A DNA stretch of 64,000 nucleotides, taken from contig NZ_CP129964.1 of NCBI RefSeq assembly GCF_030503675.1, positions 1,488,001 through 1,552,000 on the forward strand, in the 5' to 3' direction. Positions 33,215 through 52,352 of this stretch are shown one piece after another. The stretch's first letter is position 1. Each line of letters opens with the position of its first letter. The notes beneath the pieces are model-generated. The model saw only the letters and a program-made list of their open reading frames with translations, was not told the origin of the DNA and searched no databases. The position numbers and the translations under genes are program-made. This stretch comes from Lutimonas zeaxanthinifaciens. Lineage in GTDB: Bacteria; Bacteroidota; Bacteroidia; Flavobacteriales; Flavobacteriaceae.

Positions 33215-33237
33215 TATAATTATTGAATAATACATCT

Positions 33238-34092
33238 ATGGAAGATAAGTGGCTTTTTGAAATTTCAACAAAGCATAGCCTATTTCAACTAAATTTAAAA
33301 GAAGTTTGGCGCTATAGGGATTTACTCTGGTTATTTGTTAAGCGGGATGTTGTGACTTTATATAAACAAACTATATTAGGCCCTTTATGGTATTTCATAC
33401 AGCCTTTGTTTACAATGGTTATTTTCACCGTGATATTTAATCGAGTTGCGGGTATAAGCACTGGAGAAGTTCCAGCTTATTTATTTAATCTTGCAGGCAT
33501 TGTCACTTGGAATTATTTTAAGGATAGCCTCACGGCAACATCAGATACATTTAAGAAAAATGAACAAATTTTTGGAAAAGTATATTTTCCGAGAATTATT
33601 ATGCCTATGTCGATTATTGTGTCTAATCTTTTAAAATATGGTATCCAGTTAATAATTTTCATTGGTTTTTACCTTTATTATATTTTGGTTGAAGGATTAA
33701 ATATTTATCCTAATTCAAGTTTGGTATTTTTGCCTGTTTTGATCATTGTTATGGGGATGTTTGGATTGGGATTAGGGATGATTTTTTCCTCAATGGTCAC
33801 AAAATATCGAGATCTTACATTTTTACTAACTTTTGGAATTCAATTGTTAATGTACATGTCAGCTGTTTTTTATCCTCTATCTCTTATCAATGAAAAGATG
33901 CCAGATTATTCATGGATTGTAAATTTTAATCCAATGGCACATATCATAGAAACCGCGAGATATATGATGCTAGACACCGGAGAAATAACTCCTTTCAGTA
34001 TTGGATACACCGTGATTACAGCTGTTTTGGTGTTTTTTCTCGGCATCATAATTTTTAATAAAACTGAAAAAACCTTTATTGATACTGTTTAG
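33238..34092 (+). CDS. Polysaccharide ABC exporter, permease subunit (Wzm-like)
   Basis: This protein of about 284 residues belongs to the ABC-2 type permeases. 'YRDLLWLFVKRDVVTLYKQTILGPLWYFIQPLFTMVIFTVIF' near the N-terminus is characteristic of Wzm/TagG/KpsM exporters, followed by five or six membrane segments ('IVTWNYFKDSLTATSDTFKKNE', 'LITFIGFYLYYIL'-like, 'GMFGLGLGMIFSSMVTKYRDL', 'YMSAVFYPLSLI'). I prefer the ATG at 33238 over the TTG at 33223. It pairs with the Wzt-like ATPase gene that starts 5 bp after its stop, and moves lipid-linked glycan across the inner membrane. Confidence 0.93.
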   Translation: MEDKWLFEISTKHSLFQLNLKEVWRYRDLLWLFVKRDVVTLYKQTILGPLWYFIQPLFTMVIFTVIFNRVAGISTGEVPAYLFNLAGIVTWNYFKDSLTATSDTFKKNEQIFGKVYFPRIIMPMSIIVSNLLKYGIQLIIFIGFYLYYILVEGLNIYPNSSLVFLPVLIIVMGMFGLGLGMIFSSMVTKYRDLTFLLTFGIQLLMYMSAVFYPLSLINEKMPDYSWIVNFNPMAHIIETARYMMLDTGEITPFSIGYTVITAVLVFFLGIIIFNKTEKTFIDTV

Positions 34093-34097
34093 CAAAT

Positions 34098-35384
34098 ATG
34101 AGTAAGAAAGACATTATACTAAAGGTAGAAAAAGTTTCTAAACAATATCGTTTAGGACTCATTGGAACAGGAACCATCAGCCATGATTTGAATCGTTGGT
34201 GGTATCGAATTCGCGGTAAGGATGATCCGTATCTGAAAATTGGAGATACAAATGATCGTTCATCAAAGGCGGAATCAGAATATGTTTGGGCGTTAAAAAA
34301 TATTAATTTTGAAGTGGAAAGAGGGGAAGTTCTTGGTATAATCGGTAAAAATGGAGCAGGGAAGTCTACTTTGTTAAAGATACTCTCGAGGGTTACCGGG
34401 CCAACTACAGGAAGTATTAAAAGCAAAGGTAGGATAGCTTCACTTTTGGAAGTCGGAACCGGCTTTCATCCTGAATTGACTGGTAAAGAGAACATTTATC
34501 TTAACGGAGCTATTTTAGGCATGACTAAATCCGAGATTAATGCTAAGCTAAATGAAATAGTTGAGTTCTCAGGATGCGAACGTTATGTGGATACTCCAGT
34601 AAAAAGATATTCGAGCGGAATGCGAGTTCGTTTAGCCTTTGCAGTCGCTGCTTTTTTGGAGCCAGATATCTTGGTTGTAGATGAGGTTTTGGCGGTAGGC
34701 GATGCAGAATTTCAAAAGAAGGCGATAGGTAAAATGAAGGATATAAGTTCTAGTGATGGAAGAACGGTACTTTTTGTAAGTCATAATATGTCTGCCATTG
34801 AAAATTTGTGTGACAGATTAATAATTATTGACAAGGGAGGAGTCAAATACGAAGGTAATGTGGAACAAGGTATAGTTAGTTATTTAAATAGTGAAAAATC
34901 AAATTCATTGTTAGAGCTTTCTTCAAGAAAGGACAGGATTAATGGGAATATCTTCCGATTTACCTCTGTGGAAGTTTTTTCTGGTTCAATTGAGAAAATG
35001 TATCCTCCAAGAACTGGAAAGACTCTATTTATTAAGTTGAATTATGAATCTAAAGAGAAGTTTGACAAAGTCCTTGTTAGAATCATAATATCCAATAATA
35101 TGGGTAAAACTTTATTTGTTTGCAATAATTTTCACTCTTCTAAGGCTTTTGATCAAATATCAAGAAATGGATATTTCCTTTGTACCATACCTAAATTAGG
35201 GTTGTTAAGTGATAACTATTTAATCAGTTTGAAATGTGTGAGTCATAAAGAAATAATTGATGAAGTTGAAAATGCTACTAATTTTAATGTCACTGAGGGA
35301 GATTTCTTTAGTACAGGAAAAGTACCAAGTATAAACTCGGTTCTTGTAAATCATGAAATAAATTATTTTTCCGTTAAGAATTAA
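34098..35384 (+). CDS. Polysaccharide ABC exporter ATPase with C-terminal glycan-binding-like domain (Wzt-like)
   Basis: In this 428-residue protein the ATPase part (residues 1 to about 265) has Walker A 'GKNGAGKST' (83-91), 'VGTGFHPELTGKENIYLNG', signature 'YSSGMRVRLAFA' (171-182), Walker B 'ILVVDEVLAVGD' (191-202) and H-loop His229. The remaining 160 residues ('FRFTSVEVFSGS', 'KTLFIKLNYESKEKFDKVLVRIII', 'FLCTIPKLGLLSDNYLISL') look like the beta-sandwich of Wzt C-terminal domains. In E. coli O8/O9a that domain recognises the modified non-reducing end of the finished O-antigen. The next gene encodes a candidate end-modifying enzyme. Confidence 0.93.
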   Translation: MSKKDIILKVEKVSKQYRLGLIGTGTISHDLNRWWYRIRGKDDPYLKIGDTNDRSSKAESEYVWALKNINFEVERGEVLGIIGKNGAGKSTLLKILSRVTGPTTGSIKSKGRIASLLEVGTGFHPELTGKENIYLNGAILGMTKSEINAKLNEIVEFSGCERYVDTPVKRYSSGMRVRLAFAVAAFLEPDILVVDEVLAVGDAEFQKKAIGKMKDISSSDGRTVLFVSHNMSAIENLCDRLIIIDKGGVKYEGNVEQGIVSYLNSEKSNSLLELSSRKDRINGNIFRFTSVEVFSGSIEKMYPPRTGKTLFIKLNYESKEKFDKVLVRIIISNNMGKTLFVCNNFHSSKAFDQISRNGYFLCTIPKLGLLSDNYLISLKCVSHKEIIDEVENATNFNVTEGDFFSTGKVPSINSVLVNHEINYFSVKN

Positions 35385-35390
35385 ATATAA

Positions 35391-36602
35391 ATGAAAAACA
35401 ATATTTTAGTGGTAGGCCCTTCCTCGGCTGGAAAGTCTACTTACATTAAAAAATTATTAAATGATAATGAGCTAAACGACTATAAGGTTTTTATGGCTCA
35501 TGAATTTCCGAATAATAATGTTCCAATAGAAAACTGTATTTTCCATTATAACACTTTTAATGCTTTTAAAAATTTTAATGATAATTGGCAAAATGCTTTG
35601 AAAGAAGATGAGTTTTTGAATGAAGTGTTTGAAAAAAGCAAATCGCTTGAGATTCATTTATTACTTGTTGATAGACTAGTTTTATTAAAAAGAATACTTT
35701 TGAGAAAACAAGTCGAACCAATTTTTAGAAATAAAAAATCAAAGTATCCTGGAAATAAATTCATTAATATTCTATTTTCAATAGATTATGTGAAATTTTA
35801 TCGTGAAACCATAATGTTTTTTGAGTCTAAAAATATTGAATTGATTATTTTAGATAGTAATCAAGAAAATTTTGACAAAATAGAAGTTGAAGAAAAAAAA
35901 ATATTTAGTAGGAGCTCAGAAATAAATGTTAATTATACAAAAAATGAGATAGAAGAGATTATTACAAATTTTCAATTCGAATATCAAAAAATTGATCTTC
36001 CATATGGATTAAGTACGAAAGGTCAGGATAGAGACAATACTTCAAATTTCATCTTTAAGAATAGTTTAGAAGGAAAGTCGGTATTAGACGTAGGATGTGC
36101 CTATGGTTATTTTTGTTTTGAGGCAGAAAAAAGAAATGCAAATAGAGTTTTGGGAACTGAGTTAAAAGAACATAGATTTAATGGAGCCAATATTTTAAAA
36201 ACCATAAAGGGAAGTGAAGTTGAATTTTTAAGACAAGATATAATTAAGGATAGAGTTGATGAAAAATTTGATACCATTCTCTTATTAAATGTTATTCATC
36301 ATTTAGAATTTCCATTTTACAGTCTAAAGGTATTATCTGAAATGTGTAAAGACACATTAATAATAGAATATCCGACATTAGATGATGAGAAATTCCGTTC
36401 AAGTACCAAAATGAATTGGTTTCGAAAATCAAACAAGCCCTATGTAGGGGTAAGTCTCTTGAAAGAAAAGGATCAAACTTTTGTTTTTAATGATGAGGCT
36501 TTGAAAAGATTTTTAATAGACAATTTCTCTTATTTTCACAAGGTTGAATTCTATAAATCACCATTTGATAAATCTCGAAGATTAGCAATTTGTAAAAAAT
36601 GA
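35391..36602 (+). CDS. P-loop kinase-like / SAM-methyltransferase fusion, candidate chain-capping enzyme
   Basis: This 403-residue protein joins two domains. The N-terminal part (1 to about 175) is a P-loop NTPase with Walker A 'GPSSAGKST' (9-17), and 'LEIHLLLVDRLVLLKRILLRKQ' (near 87-107) could form the lid region of a small kinase. The C-terminal part (about 200-403) is a class I methyltransferase with SAM motif 'VLDVGCAYGYF' (231-241), 'VEFLRQDII' and 'LLLNVIHHLEFP'. It begins 6 bp after the Wzt-like gene. Known WbdD proteins, which cap E. coli O9a chains, combine methyltransferase and kinase domains in the opposite order with another kinase fold, so an analogous role is inferred only. Confidence 0.8.
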   Translation: MKNNILVVGPSSAGKSTYIKKLLNDNELNDYKVFMAHEFPNNNVPIENCIFHYNTFNAFKNFNDNWQNALKEDEFLNEVFEKSKSLEIHLLLVDRLVLLKRILLRKQVEPIFRNKKSKYPGNKFINILFSIDYVKFYRETIMFFESKNIELIILDSNQENFDKIEVEEKKIFSRSSEINVNYTKNEIEEIITNFQFEYQKIDLPYGLSTKGQDRDNTSNFIFKNSLEGKSVLDVGCAYGYFCFEAEKRNANRVLGTELKEHRFNGANILKTIKGSEVEFLRQDIIKDRVDEKFDTILLLNVIHHLEFPFYSLKVLSEMCKDTLIIEYPTLDDEKFRSSTKMNWFRKSNKPYVGVSLLKEKDQTFVFNDEALKRFLIDNFSYFHKVEFYKSPFDKSRRLAICKK

Positions 36603-36611
36603 TTGAGATTA

Positions 36612-37430
36612 ATGAAGAATAATAGAGTTTTAATAATTCTAGGAATGCACAGATCTGGCACATCGCTTACAGCGCAATGGTTAGATACTTGTGGTTTAAA
36701 ATTGGGTAATAGATTATTGGGAAGTGATTTTTCAAATACAAAAGGGCATATAGAAGATTTAGACTTTCTGGAACTGAATAAATTAATTTTGCAATCTAAT
36801 AATTTAAGTGAAACTGGTTTAAAAGGTGATTTGAGCAAGATTATTTTTGATGATTACCTACTGAATAGAATTAAGTCTTTATGTCAGTTTAAGAATGAAT
36901 TAAATGAGCAATGGGGATGGAAGGAGCCAAGGACATGTCTTTTTATTAATGAGTATTTGAAGTATCTCCCTGAGGCAAAAGTTCTTGTCATATTTAGGGA
37001 TCTTTCAAAGGTGAGAACTTCTTTAATCAAAAGAGATATTAAAAGATTAAAACGAGACATTAAGAAATCATCGTTAGTCAAACGAGTTAAATGGCGGTTA
37101 TTCAGTAAAAGATATATTAGGCGATTAGTTAAAACTAAGAATGAACAATATTTGAAAACAAATATTTATTATCATCAGCTACTGGTTAACTTCATTGAAA
37201 ATCATTCTCAAGGTACTATGGTCGTTTGTAATATTGATAATTTGAAGACAAGAGATCAGGTCATTTTCAATAAATTAGTTGACATGGGGTTTACTTTAAA
37301 AAATATAAATTTTTCGTCGGTTTTTGATCCATTGCTTTTTGATGAAAGGAATAGTTATATTATAAATAAGAACAAGATGACTGATGAAGAAAAAGTACTT
37401 TTTGATAAATTGACAGAATATGAAATTTAA
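36612..37430 (+). CDS. Sulfotransferase family protein
   Basis: In this protein of about 272 residues the N-terminal PAPS 5'-phosphosulfate-binding loop is 'ILGMHRSGTSLTAQWL' (near 8-23). 'GWKEPRTCLFINEYLKYLPEAKVLVIFRDLSKVRTSLIKR' (near 100-140) holds the 3'-phosphate-binding arginine/serine region. It is soluble and presumably cytosolic, transferring sulfate from PAPS to a sugar hydroxyl of the glycan precursor. The start is the ATG at 36612, because the frame upstream begins at a TTG right at the previous stop. The 3' end overlaps the next gene by 11 bp. Confidence 0.85.
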   Translation: MKNNRVLIILGMHRSGTSLTAQWLDTCGLKLGNRLLGSDFSNTKGHIEDLDFLELNKLILQSNNLSETGLKGDLSKIIFDDYLLNRIKSLCQFKNELNEQWGWKEPRTCLFINEYLKYLPEAKVLVIFRDLSKVRTSLIKRDIKRLKRDIKKSSLVKRVKWRLFSKRYIRRLVKTKNEQYLKTNIYYHQLLVNFIENHSQGTMVVCNIDNLKTRDQVIFNKLVDMGFTLKNINFSSVFDPLLFDERNSYIINKNKMTDEEKVLFDKLTEYEI

Positions 37431-38346
37431 AATCTATGTAATCATAGTAACATATAACGGATCAAAATGGATCGATAAATGTTTTGGAAGCCTCTTGAAA
37501 TCCAGTGTTCCATTGGAAATATTTGCTATTGATAATTCTTCAACTGACGGAACACCTGATATTATCAGAGCAAAATATCCCAATGTAAAAGTTATTGAAA
37601 CAGGTGAGAATTTAGGATTTGGGAAGGCAAATAATATAGGTTTGAAAAAAGCCATTGATAATGAAGCAGACTTTGTTTTTCTTTTAAATCAAGACGCATG
37701 GATTGAGGATGAGTATACTATAAGCAAATTAGTTTTAGCCGCAGAAAAGAATAAAAACTATGGTGTTATTTCACCAATTCATTTGAATGGATCCGGGGAC
37801 AAATTAGATAAAAAATTTGGTCAATATTTATATAATCTTGGAGGGAGAACTTATTTTACCGATAAATTAAGAGAAAGGATTACATCTGAAATTATTGATG
37901 TAGAATTTGTGAACGCTGCAGGATGGTTAATTACGAAAGAGTGCCTCAGCAAAGTAGGGTATTTTGATTCTTTGTTTTACCATTATGGAGAAGATTATAA
38001 TTATTTACAAAGAGTCCATTTCTTTTCTTATAAAGTAGGTGTATTGACGACGTCATTTATTAATCATGACAGAGAAGGAGTTGTTAACTCATTTCACAAA
38101 GACAGTTATTTTTTAAAAAAAATAGGATATAAATGTGAATGGGCGGATGTAAATCGAAGTTTTGATAAAATTAGTTCTGAGTCGGAGAATGTAATAAAAT
38201 TAAAAAGGGAAAAGTTGTTTAGAATGTTTATGCATTTTCATTTTAATACTTTTTTTAGAATTAAGAAGGAAATAATTGAACTAGAAGAAATTAGACAGTT
38301 ATGTCTTCAGTCATATGAGCAAAATCGCCTTCCGCTGAAAGATTAG
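37420..38346 (+). CDS. Family 2 glycosyltransferase (rhamnosyltransferase-like)
   Basis: In this 308-residue GT-A enzyme, 'YVIIVTYNGSKWIDKCFGSLLKSS' opens the nucleotide-binding half, with 'FAIDNSSTDGTPDII' and 'TGENLGFGKANNIGLKKAI' (near 62-80). The metal-binding site appears as 'FLLNQDAWIEDEY' (QDA in place of DxD), as in WbbL-type rhamnosyltransferases, followed by 'NAAGWLITKECLSKVGYFDSLFYHYGEDYNYLQRV'. Donor dTDP-rhamnose would fit the rfbCD genes, but this is inferred. It overlaps the sulfotransferase gene by 11 bp. Confidence 0.9.
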   Translation: MKFKIYVIIVTYNGSKWIDKCFGSLLKSSVPLEIFAIDNSSTDGTPDIIRAKYPNVKVIETGENLGFGKANNIGLKKAIDNEADFVFLLNQDAWIEDEYTISKLVLAAEKNKNYGVISPIHLNGSGDKLDKKFGQYLYNLGGRTYFTDKLRERITSEIIDVEFVNAAGWLITKECLSKVGYFDSLFYHYGEDYNYLQRVHFFSYKVGVLTTSFINHDREGVVNSFHKDSYFLKKIGYKCEWADVNRSFDKISSESENVIKLKREKLFRMFMHFHFNTFFRIKKEIIELEEIRQLCLQSYEQNRLPLKD

Positions 38347-38473: not shown

Positions 38474-39430
38474 ATGAGAAAGATAAAAATTTCTGTAATT
38501 ATTCCGGTCTTTAATGCTGAGATGTTTCTTAAAAGAGCTGTAAGCAGTGCTTTAGATCAAAAAGAAGTGAAAGAAGTCCTTTTAATTGAAGACAATTCCA
38601 ACGATGATTCTCTTAAATTGTGTGAAAGTTTAGAACAAGAATTTGAACAAGTTCATTTATACAGACATCAGGGAGGAATAAATAAAGGAGCAGGGGCATC
38701 GAGAAATTTGGGAATTAATAAGTCCCGTGGTGAATTTATTGCTTTTTTAGATGCTGATGATTTTTATAAGCCCGATAGGTTCAAGAAAGATGCTGAATTG
38801 TTTAATAATTTTGAGTGATACGAGGCTGTATATGGAGCATTAGGTCTTGAAGTTCAAGATGAAAAGGGACGTGAGGCCTGGAAAAAAAGAGGGTTAAATG
38901 AAAATTCACTAACAACTCTTCGAGGAACCATTAACCCCAATGATCTTTTTGATTTTCTGACAGGTTTTAGAAAATTACCAAACTCTAAAGGATATTTTCA
39001 TGTAAATTGTTTTACAGCCAGGAGAGATCTTTTAAACAAATTCAAGATTCGATTTCCGGAGAACTTACGTTTGCATCAAGATACTGTATTTTTATGGCAA
39101 TGTGCATATTATCTTAAATGCTACTCTGGTGAGACGAATAGAGCATTGGCAATTCGAACTGTTCATGTTAAAAATAGATATATTCACAATAAAAAAGAGA
39201 ATTTTACTCGATATCTTATGTATCGAGAATTAATTAGTTGGGGTAATCAAATCAATATGGAGACCGATAGAATTGATTTTTTTAAAAAAAAATATGGGTT
39301 TTATCTATCTAAATTATCAAATATTGAAAAACCTCGAAATTTATTCATGAATGATGTTTGGGGTGGTATATATAAAATTAATACTTTCTCTTCCGTTAAG
39401 TTTAGTCTTCGTTTCATGCTAAATGCTTAA
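38474..39430 (+). pseudogene. Family 2 glycosyltransferase interrupted by an in-frame TGA
   Basis: One reading frame runs from ATG 38474 to TAA 39428-39430 and is broken only by TGA at 38816-38818 (codon 115). Before it comes a normal GT-A start ('ISVIIPVFNAEMFLKRAVSSALDQ', 'LIEDNSNDDSL', 'GASRNLGINKSRGEFIAFLDADDFY'). After it the frame continues with plausible GT2 sequence ('YEAVYGALGLEVQDEKG', 'VNCFTARRDLLNKFKIRFPENLRLHQDTVFLWQCAYYL'). Full length would be 318 residues, like its neighbours. A single change from TGG or CGA would create the stop, so a recent nonsense mutation or a sequencing error is likely. Any truncated product would lack the acceptor half. Confidence 0.88.
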
Positions 39431-40517: not shown

Positions 40518-41399
40518 ATGTTCAAATTTGATTATCAAAAGCCTAAGGTTATTTCAGAAATAGGATGTAACCATATGGGGAATTTTGAAATTGCAAAAGA
40601 GCTAATACGTCTGTCGAAAGATGCAGGTGCTACCGTAGCTAAGTTTCAGAAGAGAAATAATAAGGAGTTGTTAACCAACGATCAGTATGAAGCACCTCAT
40701 CCAAATCCCTACAATTCTTATGGAGACTCATATGGGGCTCACCGAGAATATTTGGAGTTCTCGTTAGATCAACACCGTGGACTCAAAGAATATGCCGAGA
40801 ATATAGGAATTGATTATGCAACTTCGGTTTGGGATGTAACTTCTGCGAAGGAAATCATTAGTCTTAATCCAAATCTTATTAAAGTACCATCGGCATGTAA
40901 TAACAATTTTGAAATGCTTGAGGTTCTGAGAGATGAATACAAAGGAGAAGTTCATATTTCATTTGGGATGACTATTCAGGAAGAAGAAGAAAATATTATT
41001 AATTTTTTTGAAGATACAAATCAAGCAAAAGATCGTCTTATAGTTTACTCTTGTACTTCTGGTTATCCGGTTCCTTTTCCAGATATATGCCTGCTCGAAA
41101 TCAATCGGTTATATCAAAAATTTTCCGATCGGGTGAAGGAGATTGGATTCTCAGGACATCATCTGGGAATTGCAGTAGATGTTGCGGCTTATACTCTCGG
41201 AGCTAAATGGATTGAAAGACATTTTACAAAGGATAGAACTTGGAAAGGAACTGATCATGCAGCTTCTCTTGAAGTTCCCGGATTATCGAAATTAGTTAGA
41301 GACCTAGATCATACTTTTGAAGCATTAGCTTATAAGAAAAATGAAATTCTGGAAATTGAAAAAGTTCAAAGAGAGAAATTAAAATATAGAAAAGCTTAA
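40518..41399 (+). CDS. NeuB-family ulosonate (sialic-acid-like) synthase lacking the SAF domain
   Basis: This 293-residue TIM-barrel synthase is homologous to NeuB/PseI/LegI. Landmarks are 'ISEIGCNHMGNFEIAKELI' (12-30), 'AKFQKRN', 'YATSVWDVTSA' (100-110), 'IKVPSACNNNFEMLE' (121-135), 'YSCTSGYP' (177-184) and 'GFSGHHLGIAVDVAAYTLGAKWIERHFT' (metal-ligand histidines 214/215 and 235). It condenses phosphoenolpyruvate with an aldose or aldose phosphate. The protein stops at the end of the barrel; the C-terminal antifreeze-like SAF domain of ordinary NeuB (about 60 residues, substrate-capping in the dimer) is absent. A neighbouring CMP-transferase and KdsC-like phosphatase suggest a phosphorylated nonulosonate or ulosonate intermediate. 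Confidence 0.88.
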   Translation: MFKFDYQKPKVISEIGCNHMGNFEIAKELIRLSKDAGATVAKFQKRNNKELLTNDQYEAPHPNPYNSYGDSYGAHREYLEFSLDQHRGLKEYAENIGIDYATSVWDVTSAKEIISLNPNLIKVPSACNNNFEMLEVLRDEYKGEVHISFGMTIQEEEENIINFFEDTNQAKDRLIVYSCTSGYPVPFPDICLLEINRLYQKFSDRVKEIGFSGHHLGIAVDVAAYTLGAKWIERHFTKDRTWKGTDHAASLEVPGLSKLVRDLDHTFEALAYKKNEILEIEKVQREKLKYRKA

Positions 41400-42124
41400 T
41401 GGAGGTTTTAGCTATAATACCTGCAAGAGGTGGTAGTAAAGGTTTACCAGATAAAAATATACTTCCTCTTTTAGGACATCCTTTGATTGCATATAGTATT
41501 GAAGCAGCAATACGGTCGTCTCTAGTGACAAGAATTATTGTTAGTACAGATTCAAAGGAAATTGGGAAAATAGCTTTGAAATATGGAGCGGAAGTACCTT
41601 TTTTAAGACCTGAAATCTATGCTCGAGATACGAGTTCAGATCTTGAAGTTTTTAAACATGCATTAGATTGGTTAAAGAAAAAAGAAAATTACCATCCTGA
41701 TCTTGTAATTCAATTGCGCCCTACATCTCCGGTCAGACCAGAAGGTATTATTGATGCATGTATTGAAAGATTGATAAATAATTATTCAGCTGATAGCTTA
41801 AGAATAGTAACTCCATCTCCAATTACTCCCTATAAAATGTGGACACTGTTGGATGAGAACGAACCTCTTAAGCCTCTACTCTCTATTGAAGGAATAGAAG
41901 AACCGTATAATGAGCCTCGGCAACGTTTACCGAAAACTTACTGGCAAATTGGAACACTTGATGTCATAAAACCCACGGTTATTGAGAATGAAAACAGTAT
42001 GTCGGGAAAAACAATTTTGCCCTATGTACTAGGAAATGAATTTGCCGTTGATATTGATGATTTGGAAAGTTTTAATAAAGCTGGCATAGTGATTGAACAT
42101 AAGAACTGCATAAAATTCAAATGA
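41399..42124 (+). CDS. Acylneuraminate cytidylyltransferase family protein (CMP-ulosonate synthetase)
   Basis: This 241-residue protein begins with the CMP-transferase signature 'LAIIPARGGSKGLPDKNILPLLGHPLIAYSI' (CTP-binding loop). It continues with 'RIIVSTDSKEIGKIALKYGAEVPFLRPE', 'VIQLRPTSPVRPEGIID' (near 106-122) and 'AVDIDDLESFNKA' near the C-terminus, where the aspartates bind Mg. It activates the product of the preceding NeuB-like enzyme to a CMP-sugar in the cytosol. The start shares one base with the preceding stop. The exact sugar is unknown. Confidence 0.92.
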   Translation: MEVLAIIPARGGSKGLPDKNILPLLGHPLIAYSIEAAIRSSLVTRIIVSTDSKEIGKIALKYGAEVPFLRPEIYARDTSSDLEVFKHALDWLKKKENYHPDLVIQLRPTSPVRPEGIIDACIERLINNYSADSLRIVTPSPITPYKMWTLLDENEPLKPLLSIEGIEEPYNEPRQRLPKTYWQIGTLDVIKPTVIENENSMSGKTILPYVLGNEFAVDIDDLESFNKAGIVIEHKNCIKFK

Positions 42125-43092
42125 TTTTAATGAATTCGAAAATATTGATTTTTGGAGCTGGATCAATTGGAGAAAGGCATATAAAAAACCTTCTTGACCT
42201 TGGGTTTAATAAAATTACAATCTATAGGCAGCGAAATTTACCATTAAGAAATGTTGATGCGAATGACTTAGAGATCATAACAGATCTCGATAATATAGAA
42301 AAGGGTCAATTTCAATTTGCTGTTATATGCACCCCTACGTCAATGCATGTAGAACAAACCCTTTTTTGTATTGAGAAAAACATTCCGGTTCTAGTTGAAA
42401 AACCCCTGAGTCACAGTCTTGAAGGATTGAATATATTAAAATCAGCCGTGATCCAATATGGAACCTTTCTTCATGTAGGATATATGATGCGATATCATCC
42501 ACTTCTGAAAAGAATTAAATCTGGATTGGAAAAAAATGAATGGGGAAATTGTATTTATATTCGAACTTATTGGGGAGAATATTTGCCAAATTGGCATCCT
42601 TGGGAGGATTATAGAGAATCCTACGCGGCTAAAAGGTCTTTAGGAGGAGGGGCAGCTCTTACCCTAAGTCATGATTTAGATGTTGTCAATTGGCTCGTGG
42701 GAAGTGAAGTATCTAATTTTAATACCATGTATTCGCATGCGTCAAGTCTTGAATTAGATGTTGAAAGTGCCGCTGATATTCAGATAGAATATAGTAATGG
42801 TATTCAGGCCCATGTACATTTAAATTTTTTTCAAAAATTTCCTAAGCGAGAATATCAGATTGAATGTGAAGAGGCATCTCTTCTTTTTGATTTTTTTGAT
42901 AATTCTTTAACTATTCAATATCCAAATAATAAAGAAAAGAAAGTTGTTGATTCTTTCGACAGAAACGATTTATTCCTTGATCAAACCAAAGCTGTTTTTA
43001 AATTGATTAATTCAGAAAGACATAAGGAATATGCACTAAATCAGATTGAAGAATCTTCTTGTATTATTAAACTATGCACATATGAAAAATAG
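42121..43092 (+). CDS. Gfo/Idh/MocA-family oxidoreductase
   Basis: In this 323-residue protein the Rossmann motif is 'ILIFGAGSIGERHIKNLLDLG' (near 8-28), then 'FAVICTPTSMHVEQTLFCIEKNIPVLVEKPLSH' (catalytic Lys about 101), then a C-terminal alpha/beta domain with 'GGGAALTLSHDLDVVNWLVG' (histidine about 192). It overlaps the CMP-transferase by 4 bp and the SDR gene by 11 bp, so it belongs to the same functional module. It probably modifies a nucleotide sugar or a CMP-ulosonate precursor by oxidation or reduction. Confidence 0.9.
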   Translation: MILMNSKILIFGAGSIGERHIKNLLDLGFNKITIYRQRNLPLRNVDANDLEIITDLDNIEKGQFQFAVICTPTSMHVEQTLFCIEKNIPVLVEKPLSHSLEGLNILKSAVIQYGTFLHVGYMMRYHPLLKRIKSGLEKNEWGNCIYIRTYWGEYLPNWHPWEDYRESYAAKRSLGGGAALTLSHDLDVVNWLVGSEVSNFNTMYSHASSLELDVESAADIQIEYSNGIQAHVHLNFFQKFPKREYQIECEEASLLFDFFDNSLTIQYPNNKEKKVVDSFDRNDLFLDQTKAVFKLINSERHKEYALNQIEESSCIIKLCTYEK

Positions 43093-43912
43093 TATTCCGG
43101 TTAATTTGGAAGGAAAAGTGATATTAGTAACAGGAGGTATGGGATTGATTGGGAAAGAAATTTCTTACAGTTTTCTGCAGCAAGGGGCTAAAGTAATTTT
43201 TGCTGATCTAAATTTAGATTCAAGGGATAAGTACACTGATGAACTAGAAAAAAATGAAATCCCAAAAAATAATTACCTTTTTCTTCTCCTTGATATAACT
43301 TCCGAATCAAGTTGTAGTGATGTTATTAAAAGTGCTGTTTCAAAATTTGGCAAGCTGGATGTTCTTATCAATAATGCGGCAATTGATGCCAAATTTGATA
43401 AGGAAGGGAGTTCAAAAATAAATCAAAGTCGTTTTGAGAATTATCCTATAGACCTTCTTCGCAGATCAGTTGAAGTAAATTTGACTGGAACGGTAATTAT
43501 GACCCAGGTGGCTTGTAAACAAATGCTTAAACAGGGATATGGAAATATTATTAATGTGGCGTCAACATATTCCATGGTAGCACCAAATCAAAATCTTTAT
43601 GATTTTGGAGAAGGCATTCAAAACTTTAAACCTGTTGACTATATAGCATCAAAATCATTTATACCTAATTTTACGAGATACATTGCAACCTTTTACGCGA
43701 ATGAAAATATAAGATGCAATGCCATAGTTCCTCATGGGATAGAAAATAATCATCCTATTGACTTTAAAAAGAATTTCGGTGCTATGTCTCCAATGGGAAG
43801 AATGTGTGAAAGAGAAGAATTAAACGGGCCATTTTCTTTTTTAGCCTCAGATGCATCAAGTTATATGACAGGTTCTGTTTTAACAGTTGATGGGGGATGG
43901 ACAGCGTGGTAG
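43082..43912 (+). CDS. Short-chain dehydrogenase/reductase
   Basis: From the ATG at 43082 (276 residues) the protein shows the classical SDR layout: 'ILVTGGMGLIGKEIS' (TGxxxGxG-like), 'LDVLINNAAIDA' (NNAG variant), Ser in 'INVASTYSMVAPN', the YxxxK pair at 'VDYIASKSFIPNFTRYIA', and 'CNAIVPHGI' plus 'MTGSVLTVDGGW' at the end. It probably reduces or oxidises a sugar intermediate of the CMP-ulosonate module. The upstream ATG at 43046 lies 47 bp inside the previous gene and adds a leader without family similarity. Confidence 0.9.
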   Translation: MKNSIPVNLEGKVILVTGGMGLIGKEISYSFLQQGAKVIFADLNLDSRDKYTDELEKNEIPKNNYLFLLLDITSESSCSDVIKSAVSKFGKLDVLINNAAIDAKFDKEGSSKINQSRFENYPIDLLRRSVEVNLTGTVIMTQVACKQMLKQGYGNIINVASTYSMVAPNQNLYDFGEGIQNFKPVDYIASKSFIPNFTRYIATFYANENIRCNAIVPHGIENNHPIDFKKNFGAMSPMGRMCEREELNGPFSFLASDASSYMTGSVLTVDGGWTAW

Positions 43913-43934
43913 AGTTAACTAGATTTTTTCCAAT

Positions 43935-44855
43935 ATGAAGAAACATGTGTTAATTGTTGGGAGCAATAGATCTGGAACGACATGGGTAGGGGAAATGATA
44001 AGACTTTCCGGAAAATATAATTACATTTATGAACCATTTCGAGGAAGGGACAATTTAAAAGTTGAAAATCCTATACGGCATCATTTCGAATATGTTACGA
44101 AAGAAAATCATCCTTTATTTAAGAATTATTTGGATGTATGTCTTTCTAAGCAACCTTTATCATTGACTAAACAACTTAAAATTGGCTCTAGTTTTTTCGA
44201 AAAAAATGTATTTCTATTAAAGTGGTTATTTGTTTCAGTTAAAAGAGAATTTTATTTTAATGACAGATTCATCATTAAGGACCCTTTAGCTTTGTTTTCT
44301 GTAAATTGGATAAATGAGAATTATGATACCGCTACTATTGTAATTTCCCGGCATCCTGCGGCGTATGTTGCAAGTATTAAAAGATTAGGATGGAGGCACA
44401 ATATTGGAAATATTCTCAAACAAGAAGAGTTTGTCAAAAAGTATTTGCTTCATCTTAGGGATGAATTGAAGTCATTCAATCAGACACCGGATAATTTGTT
44501 ACAAGAGGCGACATTACGTTGGAAAGTTTATCAATCTTTTATTAACACTTTAAAAAGAGAATCTAATAATTACTATTTCATAAGACATGAAGATTTATCT
44601 TCTAATGTATATAACGAATATAGCAAAATTTACAATTATTTGGGCATAAACATGAAACAATCAGTTGAGGAAAAGATTAAAGAATTAAACTCCAGGGACT
44701 CCGAGCCTCTAGGTCAACAGGTTCATGTTTTGAAAAGAGACTCATTTTCTAATATTAAACGCTGGAAAGAGATATTAACAAAATCTGAGATTGAATATAT
44801 AAGGAATCAAACAATTAATATTTCTAAATATGAATATAACGAAAATGACTGGTAA
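43935..44855 (+). CDS. Sulfotransferase family protein
   Basis: In this 306-residue protein the PAPS-binding loop is 'VLIVGSNRSGTTWVGEMIRLSG' (near 5-26). The 3'-phosphate site region is 'ATIVISRHPAAYVASIKRLGW' (near 134-154), with 'YFIRHEDLS' near 215, the conserved RYEDL-like motif of sulfotransfer_1/3 enzymes. The C-terminal part carries the 'RWKEIL' substrate-loop element. It is the second sulfotransferase of the locus, with little obvious similarity to the first beyond the P-loop. Its 3' end overlaps the KdsC-like gene by 26 bp. Confidence 0.87.
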   Translation: MKKHVLIVGSNRSGTTWVGEMIRLSGKYNYIYEPFRGRDNLKVENPIRHHFEYVTKENHPLFKNYLDVCLSKQPLSLTKQLKIGSSFFEKNVFLLKWLFVSVKREFYFNDRFIIKDPLALFSVNWINENYDTATIVISRHPAAYVASIKRLGWRHNIGNILKQEEFVKKYLLHLRDELKSFNQTPDNLLQEATLRWKVYQSFINTLKRESNNYYFIRHEDLSSNVYNEYSKIYNYLGINMKQSVEEKIKELNSRDSEPLGQQVHVLKRDSFSNIKRWKEILTKSEIEYIRNQTINISKYEYNENDW

Positions 44856-45336
44856 TATTAGTATTAAACTTTTTTTGACTGATGTTGACGGTGTTCTTAC
44901 GGATGGTAGTATGTATTATACAGAGAATGGAGATGAGATAAAAAGGTTTAACACTTATGATGGGATGGCCTTTGAGTTATTGAGAAAAAATGGGATTAAA
45001 ACAGGTATCATTACATCGGAAAATACAAAGATAGTTGAAAGGAGGGCTATTAAGATGAAAGTCGATTATTTGTATCAGGGACAACGTGATGGTGGTAAAT
45101 TAGCATGTGCATTGGAGATTTGCGAGAAAGAGGGCATAGGTCTTGATAAAGTAGCTTATATCGGAGATGATATTAATTGTAAGGAATTGTTGGAAAAAGT
45201 AGGTTTTAAAGCTTGTCCAGAGAATTCACGTGAAACAATTAAGAATATAGTAGGAATCCAATTATTAAAAACTAAAGGTGGAGATGGCGCTGTTCGAGAA
45301 TGGGTAGAAATACTCTTAAAATTAGTTATAGAATGA
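44830..45336 (+). CDS. KdsC-like HAD-superfamily phosphatase
   Basis: This 168-residue type C0 HAD hydrolase has nucleophile motif 'LFLTDVDGVLTDG' (Asp18, Asp20), 'FNTYDGMAFELLRKNGIKTGIITSE' and motif IV 'VAYIGDDINCKELLEKVG'. KdsC removes phosphate from Kdo-8-phosphate; close relatives in Bacteroides dephosphorylate KDN-9-phosphate. Placed in the module with a NeuB-like synthase, it likely frees the ulosonate-9-phosphate before CMP activation. The ATG at 44845 is an alternative start that reduces overlap with the sulfotransferase gene. Confidence 0.88.
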   Translation: MNITKMTGNISIKLFLTDVDGVLTDGSMYYTENGDEIKRFNTYDGMAFELLRKNGIKTGIITSENTKIVERRAIKMKVDYLYQGQRDGGKLACALEICEKEGIGLDKVAYIGDDINCKELLEKVGFKACPENSRETIKNIVGIQLLKTKGGDGAVREWVEILLKLVIE

Positions 45337-49237: not shown

Positions 49238-50359
49238 TTGAAAAAAGTACTTACTGTATTTGGAACAAGACCAGAAGGTATTAAAATGGCAGTTTTGGCC
49301 AAAGAACTGAACGAAGAAAAGTATATTGATCATAAAATTTGTGTCACAGCCCAGCATCGTGATATGTTAGATCAAGTATTAGAATTATTTGATATAACTC
49401 CTGATTTTGATTTAGATATAATGCAACACGGTCAAGATTTAACAGATGTGACCAACCGCGTATTATCTGGTATGCGGGATCTATTTAAAAATACTTGGAA
49501 GCCCGATTTGGTCTTGATTCATGGTGATACCACAACATGCTTTGCGACTGCTCTGGCTGCTTTTTATGCAGGAATTAAAATTGGTCATGTTGAAGCTGGT
49601 TTACGCACGGGTGATTTAAGATCGCCTTTTCCTGAAGAGGCAAATAGGGTATTGGTAAGCAGAATAGCGACTTATCATTTTGCTCCAACAGTGAAAAACG
49701 TAGAGAATTTGTTGGACGAAGGCGTTATGGAGGAAAGGATAATTCAGACAGGTAATACGGTCATAGACTCTTTAAAATTTATAGCTCATAAATTGGAAGG
49801 TTTTTCGGAAAAAATAAGAAATACTGGTTTACCCGATTTATTAGAAAATGGCCGTAAATTTATTCTAATCACCGGGCACAGACGAGAAAATTTTGGAGAT
49901 GGTTTTATACATATTTGTGCGGCCATTAAGGAATTGGCTATAACTAATAATACATTTGATTTTGTGTATCCAGTGCATATGAATCCCAACGTACAGAAAC
50001 CTGTAAGAGAAATTTTGGCAGAATTACCCAACGTTCATTTGATTAAACCTTTGCAATATGAAGATTTTGTTTATGCCATGAAGCACAGTTATTTGGTTTT
50101 GACAGATTCAGGAGGGGTCCAGGAAGAAGCTCCGGGTTTAGGGAAGCCAGTCTTAGTGATGCGCGATACAACAGAGCGACCAGAGGCAGTTGAGGCAGGA
50201 ACGGTTCGTCTTGTTGGAGCAGATAAGGGAAATATAGTTTCAGGTGTTCAAAATTTAATTGATGATCAGGAATTATATGACCAAATGTCTGAAGCACATA
50301 ATCCATATGGTGAAGGAGATTCGGTGAGAAAAATAGTCAAATTTATATTGGAACTCTGA
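49238..50359 (+). CDS. wecB: UDP-N-acetylglucosamine 2-epimerase (non-hydrolysing)
   Basis: In this 373-residue protein, 'VLTVFGTRPEGIKMAVLAKEL', 'VCVTAQHRDMLDQVLELFDI'-type region, 'LVLIHGDTTTCFATALAAFYAGIKIGHVEAGLRTGD', 'FPEEANRVLVSRIATYHFAPT' and 'LTDSGGVQEEAPGLGKPVLVMRDTTERPEAV' identify WecB/MnaA, which interconverts UDP-GlcNAc and UDP-ManNAc. ManNAc may enter the glycan directly, or feed the NeuB-like synthase. The start is TTG at 49238, because the first beta strand follows immediately. The stop overlaps the next start by one base. Confidence 0.95.
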   Translation: MKKVLTVFGTRPEGIKMAVLAKELNEEKYIDHKICVTAQHRDMLDQVLELFDITPDFDLDIMQHGQDLTDVTNRVLSGMRDLFKNTWKPDLVLIHGDTTTCFATALAAFYAGIKIGHVEAGLRTGDLRSPFPEEANRVLVSRIATYHFAPTVKNVENLLDEGVMEERIIQTGNTVIDSLKFIAHKLEGFSEKIRNTGLPDLLENGRKFILITGHRRENFGDGFIHICAAIKELAITNNTFDFVYPVHMNPNVQKPVREILAELPNVHLIKPLQYEDFVYAMKHSYLVLTDSGGVQEEAPGLGKPVLVMRDTTERPEAVEAGTVRLVGADKGNIVSGVQNLIDDQELYDQMSEAHNPYGEGDSVRKIVKFILEL

Positions 50360-51129
50360 TGCTAGCTTTTTGTCATATACCTAAAACAGCAGGATCCACT
50401 TTTAATTATATCCTTCAAAAAAATTTTGGGTGTAATCTAAATTCGATTATCCCGAGAAATGGATCTAATTATTACTACAAAGATCTTAAAAAAGATCAAT
50501 TTGTATATGGTGGTGCAAAATGTATAGCTGGTCATGGTCTAAAACCATTCATTGATTATAAAGAATTTAATTCTAAATTGAAGTGGATAACTTTTTTCAG
50601 AGATCCTATAAAACGATTTGTTTCTCAATACATTCATCAACAGACAAGTAATCTTTCTCAATATCACATGCCAATTATTGATTGGGCTGAAAAATATGAA
50701 AGAAGAAATTGGCAGGTGAAATGGATAGCAGGTGAAGAGGATTTGATTGCGGCCAAGCAAATTATTGAGGAAAAATTTATTTTTTCGGGAGTAACAGAGA
50801 AATTTGATCAATCCCTTATACTATTTAGGTCTTTATTGGATAATAAAATAGATATTTCATATACGACACCAAAAATGGTAGTAAGAAATTATAATTTAAA
50901 AAATGAATTATTGAATGAAAAATATGATTCATTGTTAACCTTTTTTATCGAACAAAATGAATTGGATATTCAACTGTATGATTTTGCTAAAAGAAATTTT
51001 GAGAAAGCATTCAATCAAATTAGTTTAAAGGAACGAAGTTATTTTGAACAAAGGTCTTTTTGTCGTGAGAAAATGTTTGGGCTTAAGAGAGAATTATTGT
51101 ATAAGCCTTATGTATATTTAACGAAATGA
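50359..51129 (+). CDS. Sulfotransferase family 2-like protein
   Basis: This 256-residue protein begins with 'CHIPKTAGSTFNYIL', the PAPS loop of the heparan-sulfate 2-O/6-O sulfotransferase group (sulfotransfer_2), and has the 3'-phosphate site 'ITFFRDPIKRFVSQYIHQ' (near 76-93) and 'EKFIFSGVTEKFDQSL' near 140. It has a different P-loop subtype (HIPKTAGST) from the other two sulfotransferases of the locus. It is cytosolic and probably sulfates a sugar hydroxyl. The stop overlaps the next gene by 4 bp. Confidence 0.87.
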   Translation: MLAFCHIPKTAGSTFNYILQKNFGCNLNSIIPRNGSNYYYKDLKKDQFVYGGAKCIAGHGLKPFIDYKEFNSKLKWITFFRDPIKRFVSQYIHQQTSNLSQYHMPIIDWAEKYERRNWQVKWIAGEEDLIAAKQIIEEKFIFSGVTEKFDQSLILFRSLLDNKIDISYTTPKMVVRNYNLKNELLNEKYDSLLTFFIEQNELDIQLYDFAKRNFEKAFNQISLKERSYFEQRSFCREKMFGLKRELLYKPYVYLTK

Positions 51130-52352
51130 TGGATTTAACAAGACTAAAATATCTTCAAAAAAATCCTATTTTCATTTTATTGTTTATTAATTCGTTGCTG
51201 GTCATACTTGGATATGCAACAGCAAGAGTTTTAGGATCGGGAGCTTTTGGTCAGTTGAAACTATTTCGAACGATTTTATTGTTTGGTTCATTGGTATATG
51301 TTTTTAAACTGAATGGTCCTTTTTGTAAAAACTTATTGAATAGTTCAGCTATTTACACTCTATTAATTTGTATAATTTTTTTCGCATTATTAAGAGGAGA
51401 TGATATTGGTGATTTATATCGCTCTACCACTTTTATTATTCCCTTTTTATATGTTTTGTATACAATTAATTACTTATTAAATTTTGGTGCATTTAATCTT
51501 TTAGTTGTTTTTTCTTGGATCACGATGATTATCTATGTATTGGTTCCAATATCATTTTTTTTGTTTGGAGGAGATTTAACTGAAACTTTAATCTATGGTA
51601 AGAAAGATAGTGAGGCATTTGTATCGAATCATTATGGATGGAGCTCAACCGTGTACATCCTTAGCTCACTAACTGTTTTAAAATATTATCCGTTGAAAAG
51701 GTTATTGAAATATGCAATTTTAGTGTTTTTACCTATATCTTTTTATTTACTTATAATAAGTGCAAATAGATCTGGAATTTTAGCTTTAGTGCTTGCTTTT
51801 ATATTTTTCATCTTTAAGGATCGACATGTTAATTTAGGAACTAAAATTATGATTATAATAATTCCAATATTGACAATAGTTTATTTGGCAAACCAAGAAT
51901 ATTCTGCTATTGATTTTTTAATGGAGAAAAATGAAGCACAAATAGAATCAGGAAAGGAAGGAAGATTTGAAGCTGCGAGTGATATGATAAATGAATTTGA
52001 AGAAAATCCTGTTTTATGGTTCACTGGTGTGGGGATGTTTAATTATGAAATATTGGTTGAAAAGGGTGGTATTCTAAGAGGTTATCATAATTCATATTTT
52101 GAGATTTTATTTGGAGCTGGTTTTTTACTTTTCATTATATTTTTAATATTTATGTTATTTTGGCCATTGATTGTGTTTTGGAAGGTGACTAATAATTATT
52201 CTTTATTAATTTTTCCCTTAATTCTAATTCCATTTTTTGAAATGGACTTAACCGCCGGACAGTTTTTGTTTTTTCCTTGGTTCTCTTATATATTAGTTTT
52301 GAATGCAAAAGAATTGCACCCATTACTTTACAAGTCTTATAATATTTTATGA
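51126..52352 (+). CDS. O-antigen polymerase/ligase-like membrane protein (Wzy/WaaL family)
   Basis: This 408-residue protein has about 11 hydrophobic segments and a large periplasmic loop (about residues 255-330: 'MEKNEAQIESGKEGRFEAASDMINEFEENP'). 'GILRGYHNSYFEILFGAGF' (near 318-336) is the conserved H-N-x-x-x-E motif of the O-antigen ligase superfamily. It joins sugar units or attaches glycan to a lipid or protein acceptor in the periplasm. With an ABC exporter in the same locus, a ligase role is as likely as polymerisation. Confidence 0.85.
   Translation: MMDLTRLKYLQKNPIFILLFINSLLVILGYATARVLGSGAFGQLKLFRTILLFGSLVYVFKLNGPFCKNLLNSSAIYTLLICIIFFALLRGDDIGDLYRSTTFIIPFLYVLYTINYLLNFGAFNLLVVFSWITMIIYVLVPISFFLFGGDLTETLIYGKKDSEAFVSNHYGWSSTVYILSSLTVLKYYPLKRLLKYAILVFLPISFYLLIISANRSGILALVLAFIFFIFKDRHVNLGTKIMIIIIPILTIVYLANQEYSAIDFLMEKNEAQIESGKEGRFEAASDMINEFEENPVLWFTGVGMFNYEILVEKGGILRGYHNSYFEILFGAGFLLFIIFLIFMLFWPLIVFWKVTNNYSLLIFPLILIPFFEMDLTAGQFLFFPWFSYILVLNAKELHPLLYKSYNIL

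What the first reader, a model, noticed from the sequence alone, without database searches (positions are those of the whole stretch)
35391..36602. P-loop kinase-like/methyltransferase fusion beside Wzm-Wzt: a candidate new type of chain terminator
The gene directly follows a Wzt ATPase with a C-terminal beta-sandwich-like extension. In E. coli O8/O9a, such Wzt domains recognise a chain end capped by WbdD, which carries methyltransferase and kinase domains. Here a methyltransferase (SAM motif 231-241) is fused behind an N-terminal P-loop domain (Walker A 9-17), i.e. the opposite order and a different kinase fold. If it phosphorylates and methylates the non-reducing end, it would be an independently evolved counting or capping enzyme.
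Basis: partly seen in the sequence, partly recalled or inferred. Interest (0 to 1): 0.75.

Follow-up and report, generated by a model that had tools for sequence, protein, structure and literature searches.

The report
Candidate glycan end-capping enzyme beside Wzt
This gene encodes a rare enzyme that joins a kinase-like part to a methyl-transferring part and sits where related bacteria keep interchangeable enzymes that probably mark the finished end of a surface sugar chain for export, so it may be a new way of making such a mark.

Summary
In detail: 35391-36602 encodes a P-loop domain fused to a SAM methyltransferase, 6 bases after a Wzt whose C-terminal domain matches the solved cap-binding domain (CBD) of Aquifex Wzt. 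The N-domain is predicted to have a P-loop kinase fold. The fusion is rare: four full-length homologues were found, in distant groups. One (Moorena) lies 35 kb from a CBD-type Wzt; four of the five copies have a sulfotransferase-like gene within two genes.

Position is the best evidence. In 21 family members with a similar Wzt, the gene right after wzt is a sulfotransferase (9), methyltransferase (7), protein kinase-methyltransferase (1), pyruvyltransferase (1) or other (3). The CBD covaries with this gene, not clearly with genes +2 to +5 or the ATPase domain. The methyl-binding Trp of Aquifex is kept in 6 of 7 methyltransferase-linked CBDs and 0 of 15 others, the window included.

A capping enzyme is the best reading, probably methyl-phosphate. 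But the window's CBD most resembles sulfotransferase-linked ones, so a sulfate cap made by the next gene is a serious rival. 'Counting' is unsupported: no coiled coil. Methyltransferase-kinase caps with two other kinase types are already known.

The parts
33223..34092 (+). Wzm, membrane subunit of the polysaccharide ABC exporter
   Evidence: Pfam ABC2_membrane E 3e-17
34098..35384 (+). Wzt, ATPase subunit with C-terminal cap-binding domain
   Evidence: Pfam ABC_tran 2.2e-23 and Wzt_C 34.3 bits over the cut-off of 30.4
34908..35381 (+). Wzt cap-binding domain (CBD); pocket positions I, S, K, E where A. aeolicus has L300, T346, A348, W362
   Evidence: matches 8dky/6o14 at E about 6e-5; pocket columns the same in three alignments; G+C 28.6% against 38.3% in the ATPase part
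35391..36602 (+). P-loop kinase-like/methyltransferase fusion, the finding
35391..35885 (+). N-terminal P-loop kinase-like domain (residues 1-165)
   Evidence: model of the domain alone, pLDDT 76.7; 46 of the 50 listed structural neighbours are titled kinases and the other four (hCINAP/AD-004 twice, PFKFB3, a toxin-antitoxin system) are P-loop phosphotransferases as recalled; best Z 11.1; invariant G9 S11 G14 K15 S16 H52 N54 K100 R101 E109 D132 among others in five full-length members
35976..36599 (+). C-terminal class I SAM methyltransferase domain (about residues 196-403)
   Evidence: Pfam; VIA-align Z 19.2 to XrdM, 18.3 to UbiG, 17.6 to CmoB
36603..37430 (+). sulfotransferase-like protein, possible partner or rival cap enzyme
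   Evidence: Sulfotransfer_3 25.1 bits, under the cut-off of 27; related to the sulfotransferases near the fusion in L001 (E 2e-17) and L003 (E 2e-10)
37420..38346 (+). family 2 glycosyltransferase that follows the capping slot in several relatives
   Evidence: Glycos_transf_2; homologues of 41-49% identity at +2 in L064 and L079 and +3 in L066 and L082

Best explanation
The protein caps the non-reducing end of the polysaccharide that this cluster makes and exports through Wzm-Wzt. The P-loop domain would transfer a phosphate from ATP to a hydroxyl of the end sugar. The methyltransferase domain would then methylate that phosphate, giving a methyl-phosphate end as WbdD does. The cap stops elongation, and the CBD of the neighbouring Wzt binds it so that only finished chains are exported. 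Shown by computation: the fusion, the two predicted folds, the adjacency to a CBD-type Wzt, and the coupling of CBD and next gene in relatives. Inferred: kinase activity, the acceptor, the order of steps, methylation of phosphate rather than sugar, and recognition of the product by this CBD.
For: Kinase-like fold of the N-domain with conserved Walker A and an invariant Lys-Arg pair in the presumed lid helix. Position 6 bases after a CBD-bearing Wzt. In 21 relatives the +1 gene is a sulfotransferase (9), methyltransferase (7), protein kinase-methyltransferase (1) or pyruvyltransferase (1), with 3 others; family 2 glycosyltransferases appear from +2 on. Pairs of loci with homologous +1 genes share CBD identity of 35.5% against 22.1%, 0 of 5000 permutations, with no difference in the ATPase domain and no comparable signal at +2 to +5. 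The pocket Trp that stacks on the methyl cap in A. aeolicus (PMC9445017, passages read) is present in 6 of 7 methyltransferase-linked CBDs and 0 of 15 others, so the slot gene goes with the pocket. L075 has a kinase-methyltransferase protein in the same slot whose methyltransferase is weakly related to the window's, 27%, E 2e-6.
Against: The window's CBD is closest (29-32%) to four CBDs whose +1 gene is a sulfotransferase, and a sulfotransferase-like gene follows the fusion, so that gene may make the cap. The window adds nothing of its own to the covariation: its only homologous partner, L075, has a CBD of 22% identity. Neighbouring DNA can be transferred together without functional matching. 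Methyltransferases are not confined to +1: at +2 up to 3 of 21 match general class I models and 2 of 21 FkbM. Three of the four homologues are not shown to be near a CBD-type Wzt, and L004 lies in no polysaccharide locus recognisable by eye. No coiled-coil ruler, which the K. pneumoniae terminators have (PMC11231755). His 52 sits at the end of strand 3 where many P-loop kinases have Asp (recalled), so the catalytic base is uncertain. In A. salmonicida a sulfotransferase-domain ORF directly follows wzt and precedes wbbB; K. pneumoniae O12 WbbB carries a Kdo terminator, so +1 need not be the terminator.
Confidence: 0.45

Rival explanations
1. The sulfotransferase-like protein at 36603-37430 makes the cap that the Wzt CBD reads (a sulfate), and the fusion adds a second decoration to the same polysaccharide.
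For: The four CBDs nearest the window's, L064-L067, all have a sulfotransferase at +1; 9 of 21 loci do, so four of four has a chance of 0.021. The window pocket has an acidic residue at the Trp position like 5 of 9 sulfotransferase-linked CBDs and none of the other 12. Sulfotransferase-like genes accompany the fusion in 4 of 5 loci.
Against: The fusion, not the sulfotransferase, is directly after wzt. The sulfotransferase scores under the Pfam cut-off, and none of the 20 +1 proteins compared had it as best match among the window's proteins at E 1e-4. CBD identity of about 30% is weak.
Confidence: 0.25
2. The two domains modify an internal sugar, a side branch or a precursor of the polysaccharide (phosphorylation and methylation as decoration), with no role in termination.
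For: Homologues occur away from CBD-type Wzt. Moorena has a stand-alone N-domain protein in a run of genes that by eye include an acyl carrier protein and a radical SAM-like gene, far from both Wzt_C matches of that genome. The methyltransferase type also occurs in viral contigs.
Against: Position in the slot and the CBD-slot coupling in relatives.
Confidence: 0.2
3. The N-domain is not a phosphotransferase but an ATP-binding regulatory or partner-binding part, and only the methyltransferase acts, giving a methyl ether.
For: No Asp conserved at the end of strand 3 (His 52 instead); no Pfam family over its cut-off for the window's N-domain.
Against: Invariant Walker A Lys and Ser, Lys-Arg pair, Glu 109 and Asp 132; kinases fill the list of structural neighbours; the window CBD lacks the methyl-binding Trp and Thr found with methyltransferase-only loci.
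Confidence: 0.1

Closest known systems
WbdD (E. coli O9a / K. pneumoniae O3 methyltransferase-kinase terminator)
   Same: Kinase plus methyltransferase in one chain, with a CBD-type Wzm-Wzt; the proposed product is the same
   Different: WbdD runs methyltransferase, eukaryote-type kinase, coiled coil (PMC3482155, passages read); here a P-loop kinase fold comes first and there is no coiled coil. WbdD chains appear in the sequence search of the window protein only at E 0.05-0.08, over residues 230-306
ORF6-O7 N-terminal part (K. pneumoniae O7)
   Same: Methyltransferase-kinase terminator whose kinase differs from WbdD's; a demonstrated precedent (PMC11231755, passages read)
   Different: Its kinase resembles AmiN, its order is methyltransferase then kinase, and it carries a coiled coil and glycosyltransferase modules
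Aquifex aeolicus WzmWzt with 3-O-methyl cap
   Same: Wzt CBD homologous to the window's
   Different: The window CBD has I, S, K and E where the methyl pocket has L300, T346, A348 and W362
TIGR04290 and CmoB-like methyltransferases
   Same: Nearest named sequence families of the methyltransferase domain, matched by all five members
   Different: Scores far under the curated cut-offs (window: 69 of 300 bits; 43 of 275)
P-loop kinases (adenylate, O-phosphoseryl-tRNA, gluconate and sugar kinases, PPK2)
   Same: Predicted fold of the N-domain
   Different: No sequence family assignment; invariant His at the end of strand 3

Membership tests
WbdD-type chain terminator | kinase and methyltransferase domains in one protein | tested here: met
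   Pfam and structure models; kinase activity itself untested
WbdD-type chain terminator | eukaryote-type protein kinase fold | tested here: not met
   N-domain has Walker A and a predicted P-loop kinase fold
WbdD-type chain terminator | methyltransferase first, kinase second | tested here: not met
   order is reversed
WbdD-type chain terminator | C-terminal coiled-coil ruler | tested here: not met
   403 aa; longest helices in the model are 14 residues
WbdD-type chain terminator | encoded with a Wzt that carries a CBD | tested here: met
   Wzt_C over cut-off, directly upstream; homologous to a solved CBD
WbdD-type chain terminator | phosphorylates then methylates the non-reducing end | not testable with these tools
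   needs an enzyme assay
P-loop kinase superfamily | Walker A motif in a kinase-like three-layer fold | tested here: met
   key residues of GPSSAGKS invariant; VIA-align Z 11.1, rmsd 3.2, 140 aligned to an adenylate kinase
P-loop kinase superfamily | identified catalytic acid or base and phosphoacceptor site | tested here: inconclusive
   H52, E109 and D132 are invariant; none is assigned
class I SAM methyltransferase | motif I and Rossmann-like fold | tested here: met
TIGR04290 / CmoB equivalogs | score above the curated cut-off | tested here: not met
CBD-type ABC-exported polysaccharide system | Wzm, Wzt with CBD, and a capping enzyme in one locus | tested here: inconclusive
   first two present; the capping enzyme is the hypothesis

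The most novel reading that the evidence does not exclude
In this bacterial family the Wzt cap-binding domain and the gene right after it form a swappable lock-and-key cassette. The ATPase half of Wzt stays constant while CBD and cap enzyme change together among sulfate, methyl, pyruvate and methyl-phosphate chemistries. The window carries a third, independently evolved methyl-phosphate terminator built on a P-loop kinase and working without a coiled-coil ruler; sulfotransferases are the commonest terminators of the system.
Probability: 0.35. Interest if true: 0.8.

Novelty: new variant of a known kind. Interest (0 to 1): 0.62.

Why it matters
If true, chain-end capping in ABC-exported polysaccharides is more varied than the caps named in the papers seen here (methyl, methyl-phosphate, Kdo), and the gene after wzt together with a few pocket residues would let one predict the cap from sequence. 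It would also give a third kind of kinase recruited to the same job, and would make directly testable how chain length is set without a coiled-coil ruler.

Tried and rejected
Phage origin of the fusion: no match in 50,697 phage records. IMG/VR gave no stretch for the single protein, 14 loci matching in the methyltransferase part and 2 loci matching only around Walker A. Plasmids: none of 140 matching records covers 80% of the query; the 20 rows listed start at residue 165 or later.

Tight general linkage of the fusion to CBD-type Wzt: not found. Wzt_C rings in 3 of 5 genomes: next to the fusion in the window, 35 kb away in Moorena, on another contig in G417. The Moorena Wzt is borderline for Wzt_C: 32.1 bits, 29.5, cut-off 30.4. 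A gene would lie within 35 kb of one of two Wzt_C genes in Moorena by chance with a probability of about 0.017.

N-domain as a sulfotransferase: rejected, since it has an intact Walker A and a predicted P-loop kinase fold. The whole-protein fold search told mainly about the methyltransferase; WbdD was not among the 50 rows shown, which excludes nothing. The viral structure library gave mostly kinases and unnamed proteins for the N-domain.

A tight match between the window's CBD and that of the other kinase-methyltransferase locus (L075) was hoped for and not found: 22.2% identity, no more than background. L075's kinase-methyltransferase part matched no chain named WbdD in the PDB at E up to 1.

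Literature: the census by Mann, Kimber and Whitfield (Glycobiology 2019, seen here only in a reference list) is not held. It may already list sulfotransferase or other slot genes, so novelty of the slot rule is not established.

Full report
Observation. The frame at 35391-36602 is real and reads as described: 403 aa, Walker A at residues 9-16, SAM motif at 231-241. It starts 6 bases after wzt. Pfam finds a methyltransferase (Methyltransf_31 E 5.9e-9 and others) and, upstream, ABC2_membrane (Wzm) and ABC_tran plus Wzt_C (Wzt). The Wzt C-terminal domain matches the crystallised A. aeolicus CBD, E about 6e-5. The gene that follows, 36603-37430, is sulfotransferase-like but under the Pfam cut-off (25.1 of 27 bits).

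The family. One genome-contig scan, which reaches close relatives only, gave 33 stretches and 4 relatives, all full length: a Chitinophagales MAG (L001, 48%), a gammaproteobacterial MAG (L002, 40%), Moorena bouillonii (L003, 40%, with an in-frame TAA between the domains) and an Obscuribacterales MAG (L004, 33%). Fifteen N-domain residues are invariant in the five, among them G9 S11 G14 K15 S16 H52 N54 K100 R101 E109 D132. Moorena also has a second, stand-alone N-domain match. The gene is rare. Apart from the genome at the centre of each search, no other was found to carry it: own phylum 1 of 395, own genus 1 of 22, class of Moorena 1 of 388 for the fusion, a second genome matching in the methyltransferase part only, class of L002's genome 1 of 369, own family 1 of 199, class of L004's genome 1 of 146, order of L001's genome 1 of 248. 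The queries and thresholds differ (whole protein or profile to E 1e-15 to 1e-25; N-domain profile to 1e-7 or 1e-8), and in most of these searches only the top candidates per genome were scored, so weak relatives may be missed.

Fold. The full model (pLDDT 78.5, pTM 0.79, five sequences) has a methyltransferase fold from about residue 196 on. The N-domain alone (pLDDT 76.7) has P-loop kinases as its neighbours: adenylate kinase Z 11.1 (rmsd 3.2, 140 aligned), O-phosphoseryl-tRNA kinase 9.7, a sugar kinase 9.3, gluconate kinase 9.0; 46 of the 50 rows shown are titled kinases. A best Z of 7 to 8 is typical for that aligner even without a clear relative, so the margin is modest, but the list is uniform. 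In Pfam the six N-domains gave only weak matches in the tables shown. The invariant residue at the end of strand 3 is His 52; that Asp is usual there is recalled knowledge. The longest helices are 14 residues, so there is no coiled-coil ruler.

Neighbourhoods of the fusion. A sulfotransferase-like gene lies within two genes in the window, L001, L002 and L003, not in L004. In L002's genome it is the only Sulfotransfer_3 match at E 0.001. The ones in the window, L001 and L003 are related (E 2e-10 to 4e-18), L002's more weakly. CBD-type Wzt: adjacent in the window; 35 kb upstream in Moorena (borderline Wzt_C: 32.1 bits, 29.5), where all but one of the frames listed in between are on the same strand and many look by eye like polysaccharide genes; on another contig in G417 (L002), where the fusion lies near a contig end; none found in the genomes of L001 and L004. 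Around L004 no polysaccharide cluster is recognisable by eye within about 19 kb.

The slot after wzt. The window's CBD was searched in 214 genomes of its family: 22 match, 21 besides the window's own, and all 21 loci were fetched. The ATPase halves are 73-83% identical to the window's, the CBDs 19-32%. The gene directly after wzt is a sulfotransferase in 9 of 21 (one fused to a hexapeptide domain), a methyltransferase in 7 (five by Pfam, two of these under the cut-off; two more only by BLAST to the others), a hexapeptide-protein kinase-methyltransferase protein in 1 (L075), a pyruvyltransferase in 1, and an epimerase, a GT56 and an unassigned protein in 3 (19 of 21 scanned one by one, all 21 together). 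Sulfotransferases: 9 of 21 at +1, 1 of 21 at +2, 3 of 60 at +3 to +5 (the family tables there are cut at 25 rows, so the control positions were re-counted with profiles built here, partly from the +1 proteins, with the same result; Fisher P 6e-5 for +1 against +2 to +5). Family 2 glycosyltransferases: none seen at +1, 11 of 21 at +2, 28 of 60 at +3 to +5. Methyltransferases are less specific: at +2, up to 3 of 21 match general class I models and 2 of 21 match FkbM. The glycosyltransferase at +3 in the window has homologues at +2 in L064 and L079 and +3 in L066 and L082, so different genes occupy the interval between wzt and it.

Coupling of CBD and slot gene. Among 22 loci, 16 of 231 pairs have homologous +1 genes. 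Their CBDs share 35.5% identity on average against 22.1% for other pairs (0 of 5000 permutations), while their ATPase domains do not differ. The same test at +2, +3, +4 and +5 gives differences of 1.4, 2.7, -1.2 and 0.7 points against 13.4 at +1; +3 is nominally reached by 49 of 2000 permutations and falls to 0.2 points at a stricter threshold. Composition agrees: CBD G+C is lower than ATPase G+C in 21 of 21 and on average close to that of the +1 gene. Adjacent genes can travel together without functional matching, so this shows a joint cassette, not yet a lock and key.

Pocket. In A. aeolicus the methyl group of the cap sits in a pocket of L300, T346, A348 and W362 (PMC9445017, passages read). 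Aligned in three ways with the same result, Trp is present in 6 of 7 methyltransferase-linked CBDs and 0 of 15 others, and Thr in 7 of 7 against 3 of 15. The sequences are related, so the P values overstate the independence. This is the best sign that the slot enzyme makes what the CBD reads. The window has I, S, K and E: not a methyl pocket, and nearest to the sulfotransferase-linked group in its acidic residue. Its four closest CBDs (29-32%) all belong to sulfotransferase loci. Sulfate and methyl-phosphate esters both carry a single charge, so this pocket could fit either cap (inference).

Interpretation. A kinase-methyltransferase in a slot of mostly non-sugar modifying enzymes, beside a CBD without the methyl pocket, is best read as a methyl-phosphate capping enzyme (0.45). 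A sulfate cap from the next gene (0.25) and decoration without termination (0.2) remain open. A. salmonicida shows that a +1 sulfotransferase need not be the terminator: there it precedes wbbB (PMC4483657, passages read). Kinases of different kinds have been recruited to this job before: WbdD with a eukaryote-type kinase (PMC3482155, passages read) and K. pneumoniae O7 ORF6 with an AmiN-like one (PMC11231755, passages and the first part of the Discussion read). A P-loop kinase would be a third. The K. pneumoniae examples carry a coiled-coil ruler, and it is called a hallmark of terminators (PMC11127046, passages read); this protein has none.

Limits. Nothing here is an assay. The genomes behind the 21 loci are unnamed, and they were chosen by similarity to the window's CBD. 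The window itself contributes no positive pair to the covariation. The 2019 census of terminators could not be read.

Noticed in passing
L075:5437-7269 (-) and L080:8389-9753 (+): A shared hexapeptide part (54% identical) is fused to a protein kinase-methyltransferase in one locus and to a sulfotransferase in another, both directly after wzt: domain shuffling within the slot.
   Followed up: partly
window 38474-39430: A family 2 glycosyltransferase-like frame is interrupted by an in-frame stop at 38816-38818; the gene looks broken or split.
   Followed up: no
L027:6115-6669: Moorena has a stand-alone copy of the N-domain in a run of genes that by eye include an acyl carrier protein, a radical SAM-like and a FkbM-like gene.
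   Followed up: no
L014:3426-4910: A viral contig encodes a sulfotransferase-like part fused to a methyltransferase of the same general type as the window's, judged by eye from the motifs.
   Followed up: no
window 40518-45336: NeuB-like synthase, CMP-sugar transferase and a HAD phosphatase suggest a CMP-activated acidic sugar in the same cluster, a possible sugar-type cap.
   Followed up: no
window 43935-44855 and 50359-51129: Two more sulfotransferases in the cluster (Sulfotransfer_1 and Sulfotransfer_2), so the polysaccharide is probably sulfated.
   Followed up: no
window 51126-52352: An O-antigen ligase or polymerase-type protein (Wzy_C) in a cluster that also has Wzm-Wzt.
   Followed up: no
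L071:8342-13234: The +1 methyltransferase and the gene after it appear twice in tandem; the first 70 residues printed are identical in both copies of each.
   Followed up: no
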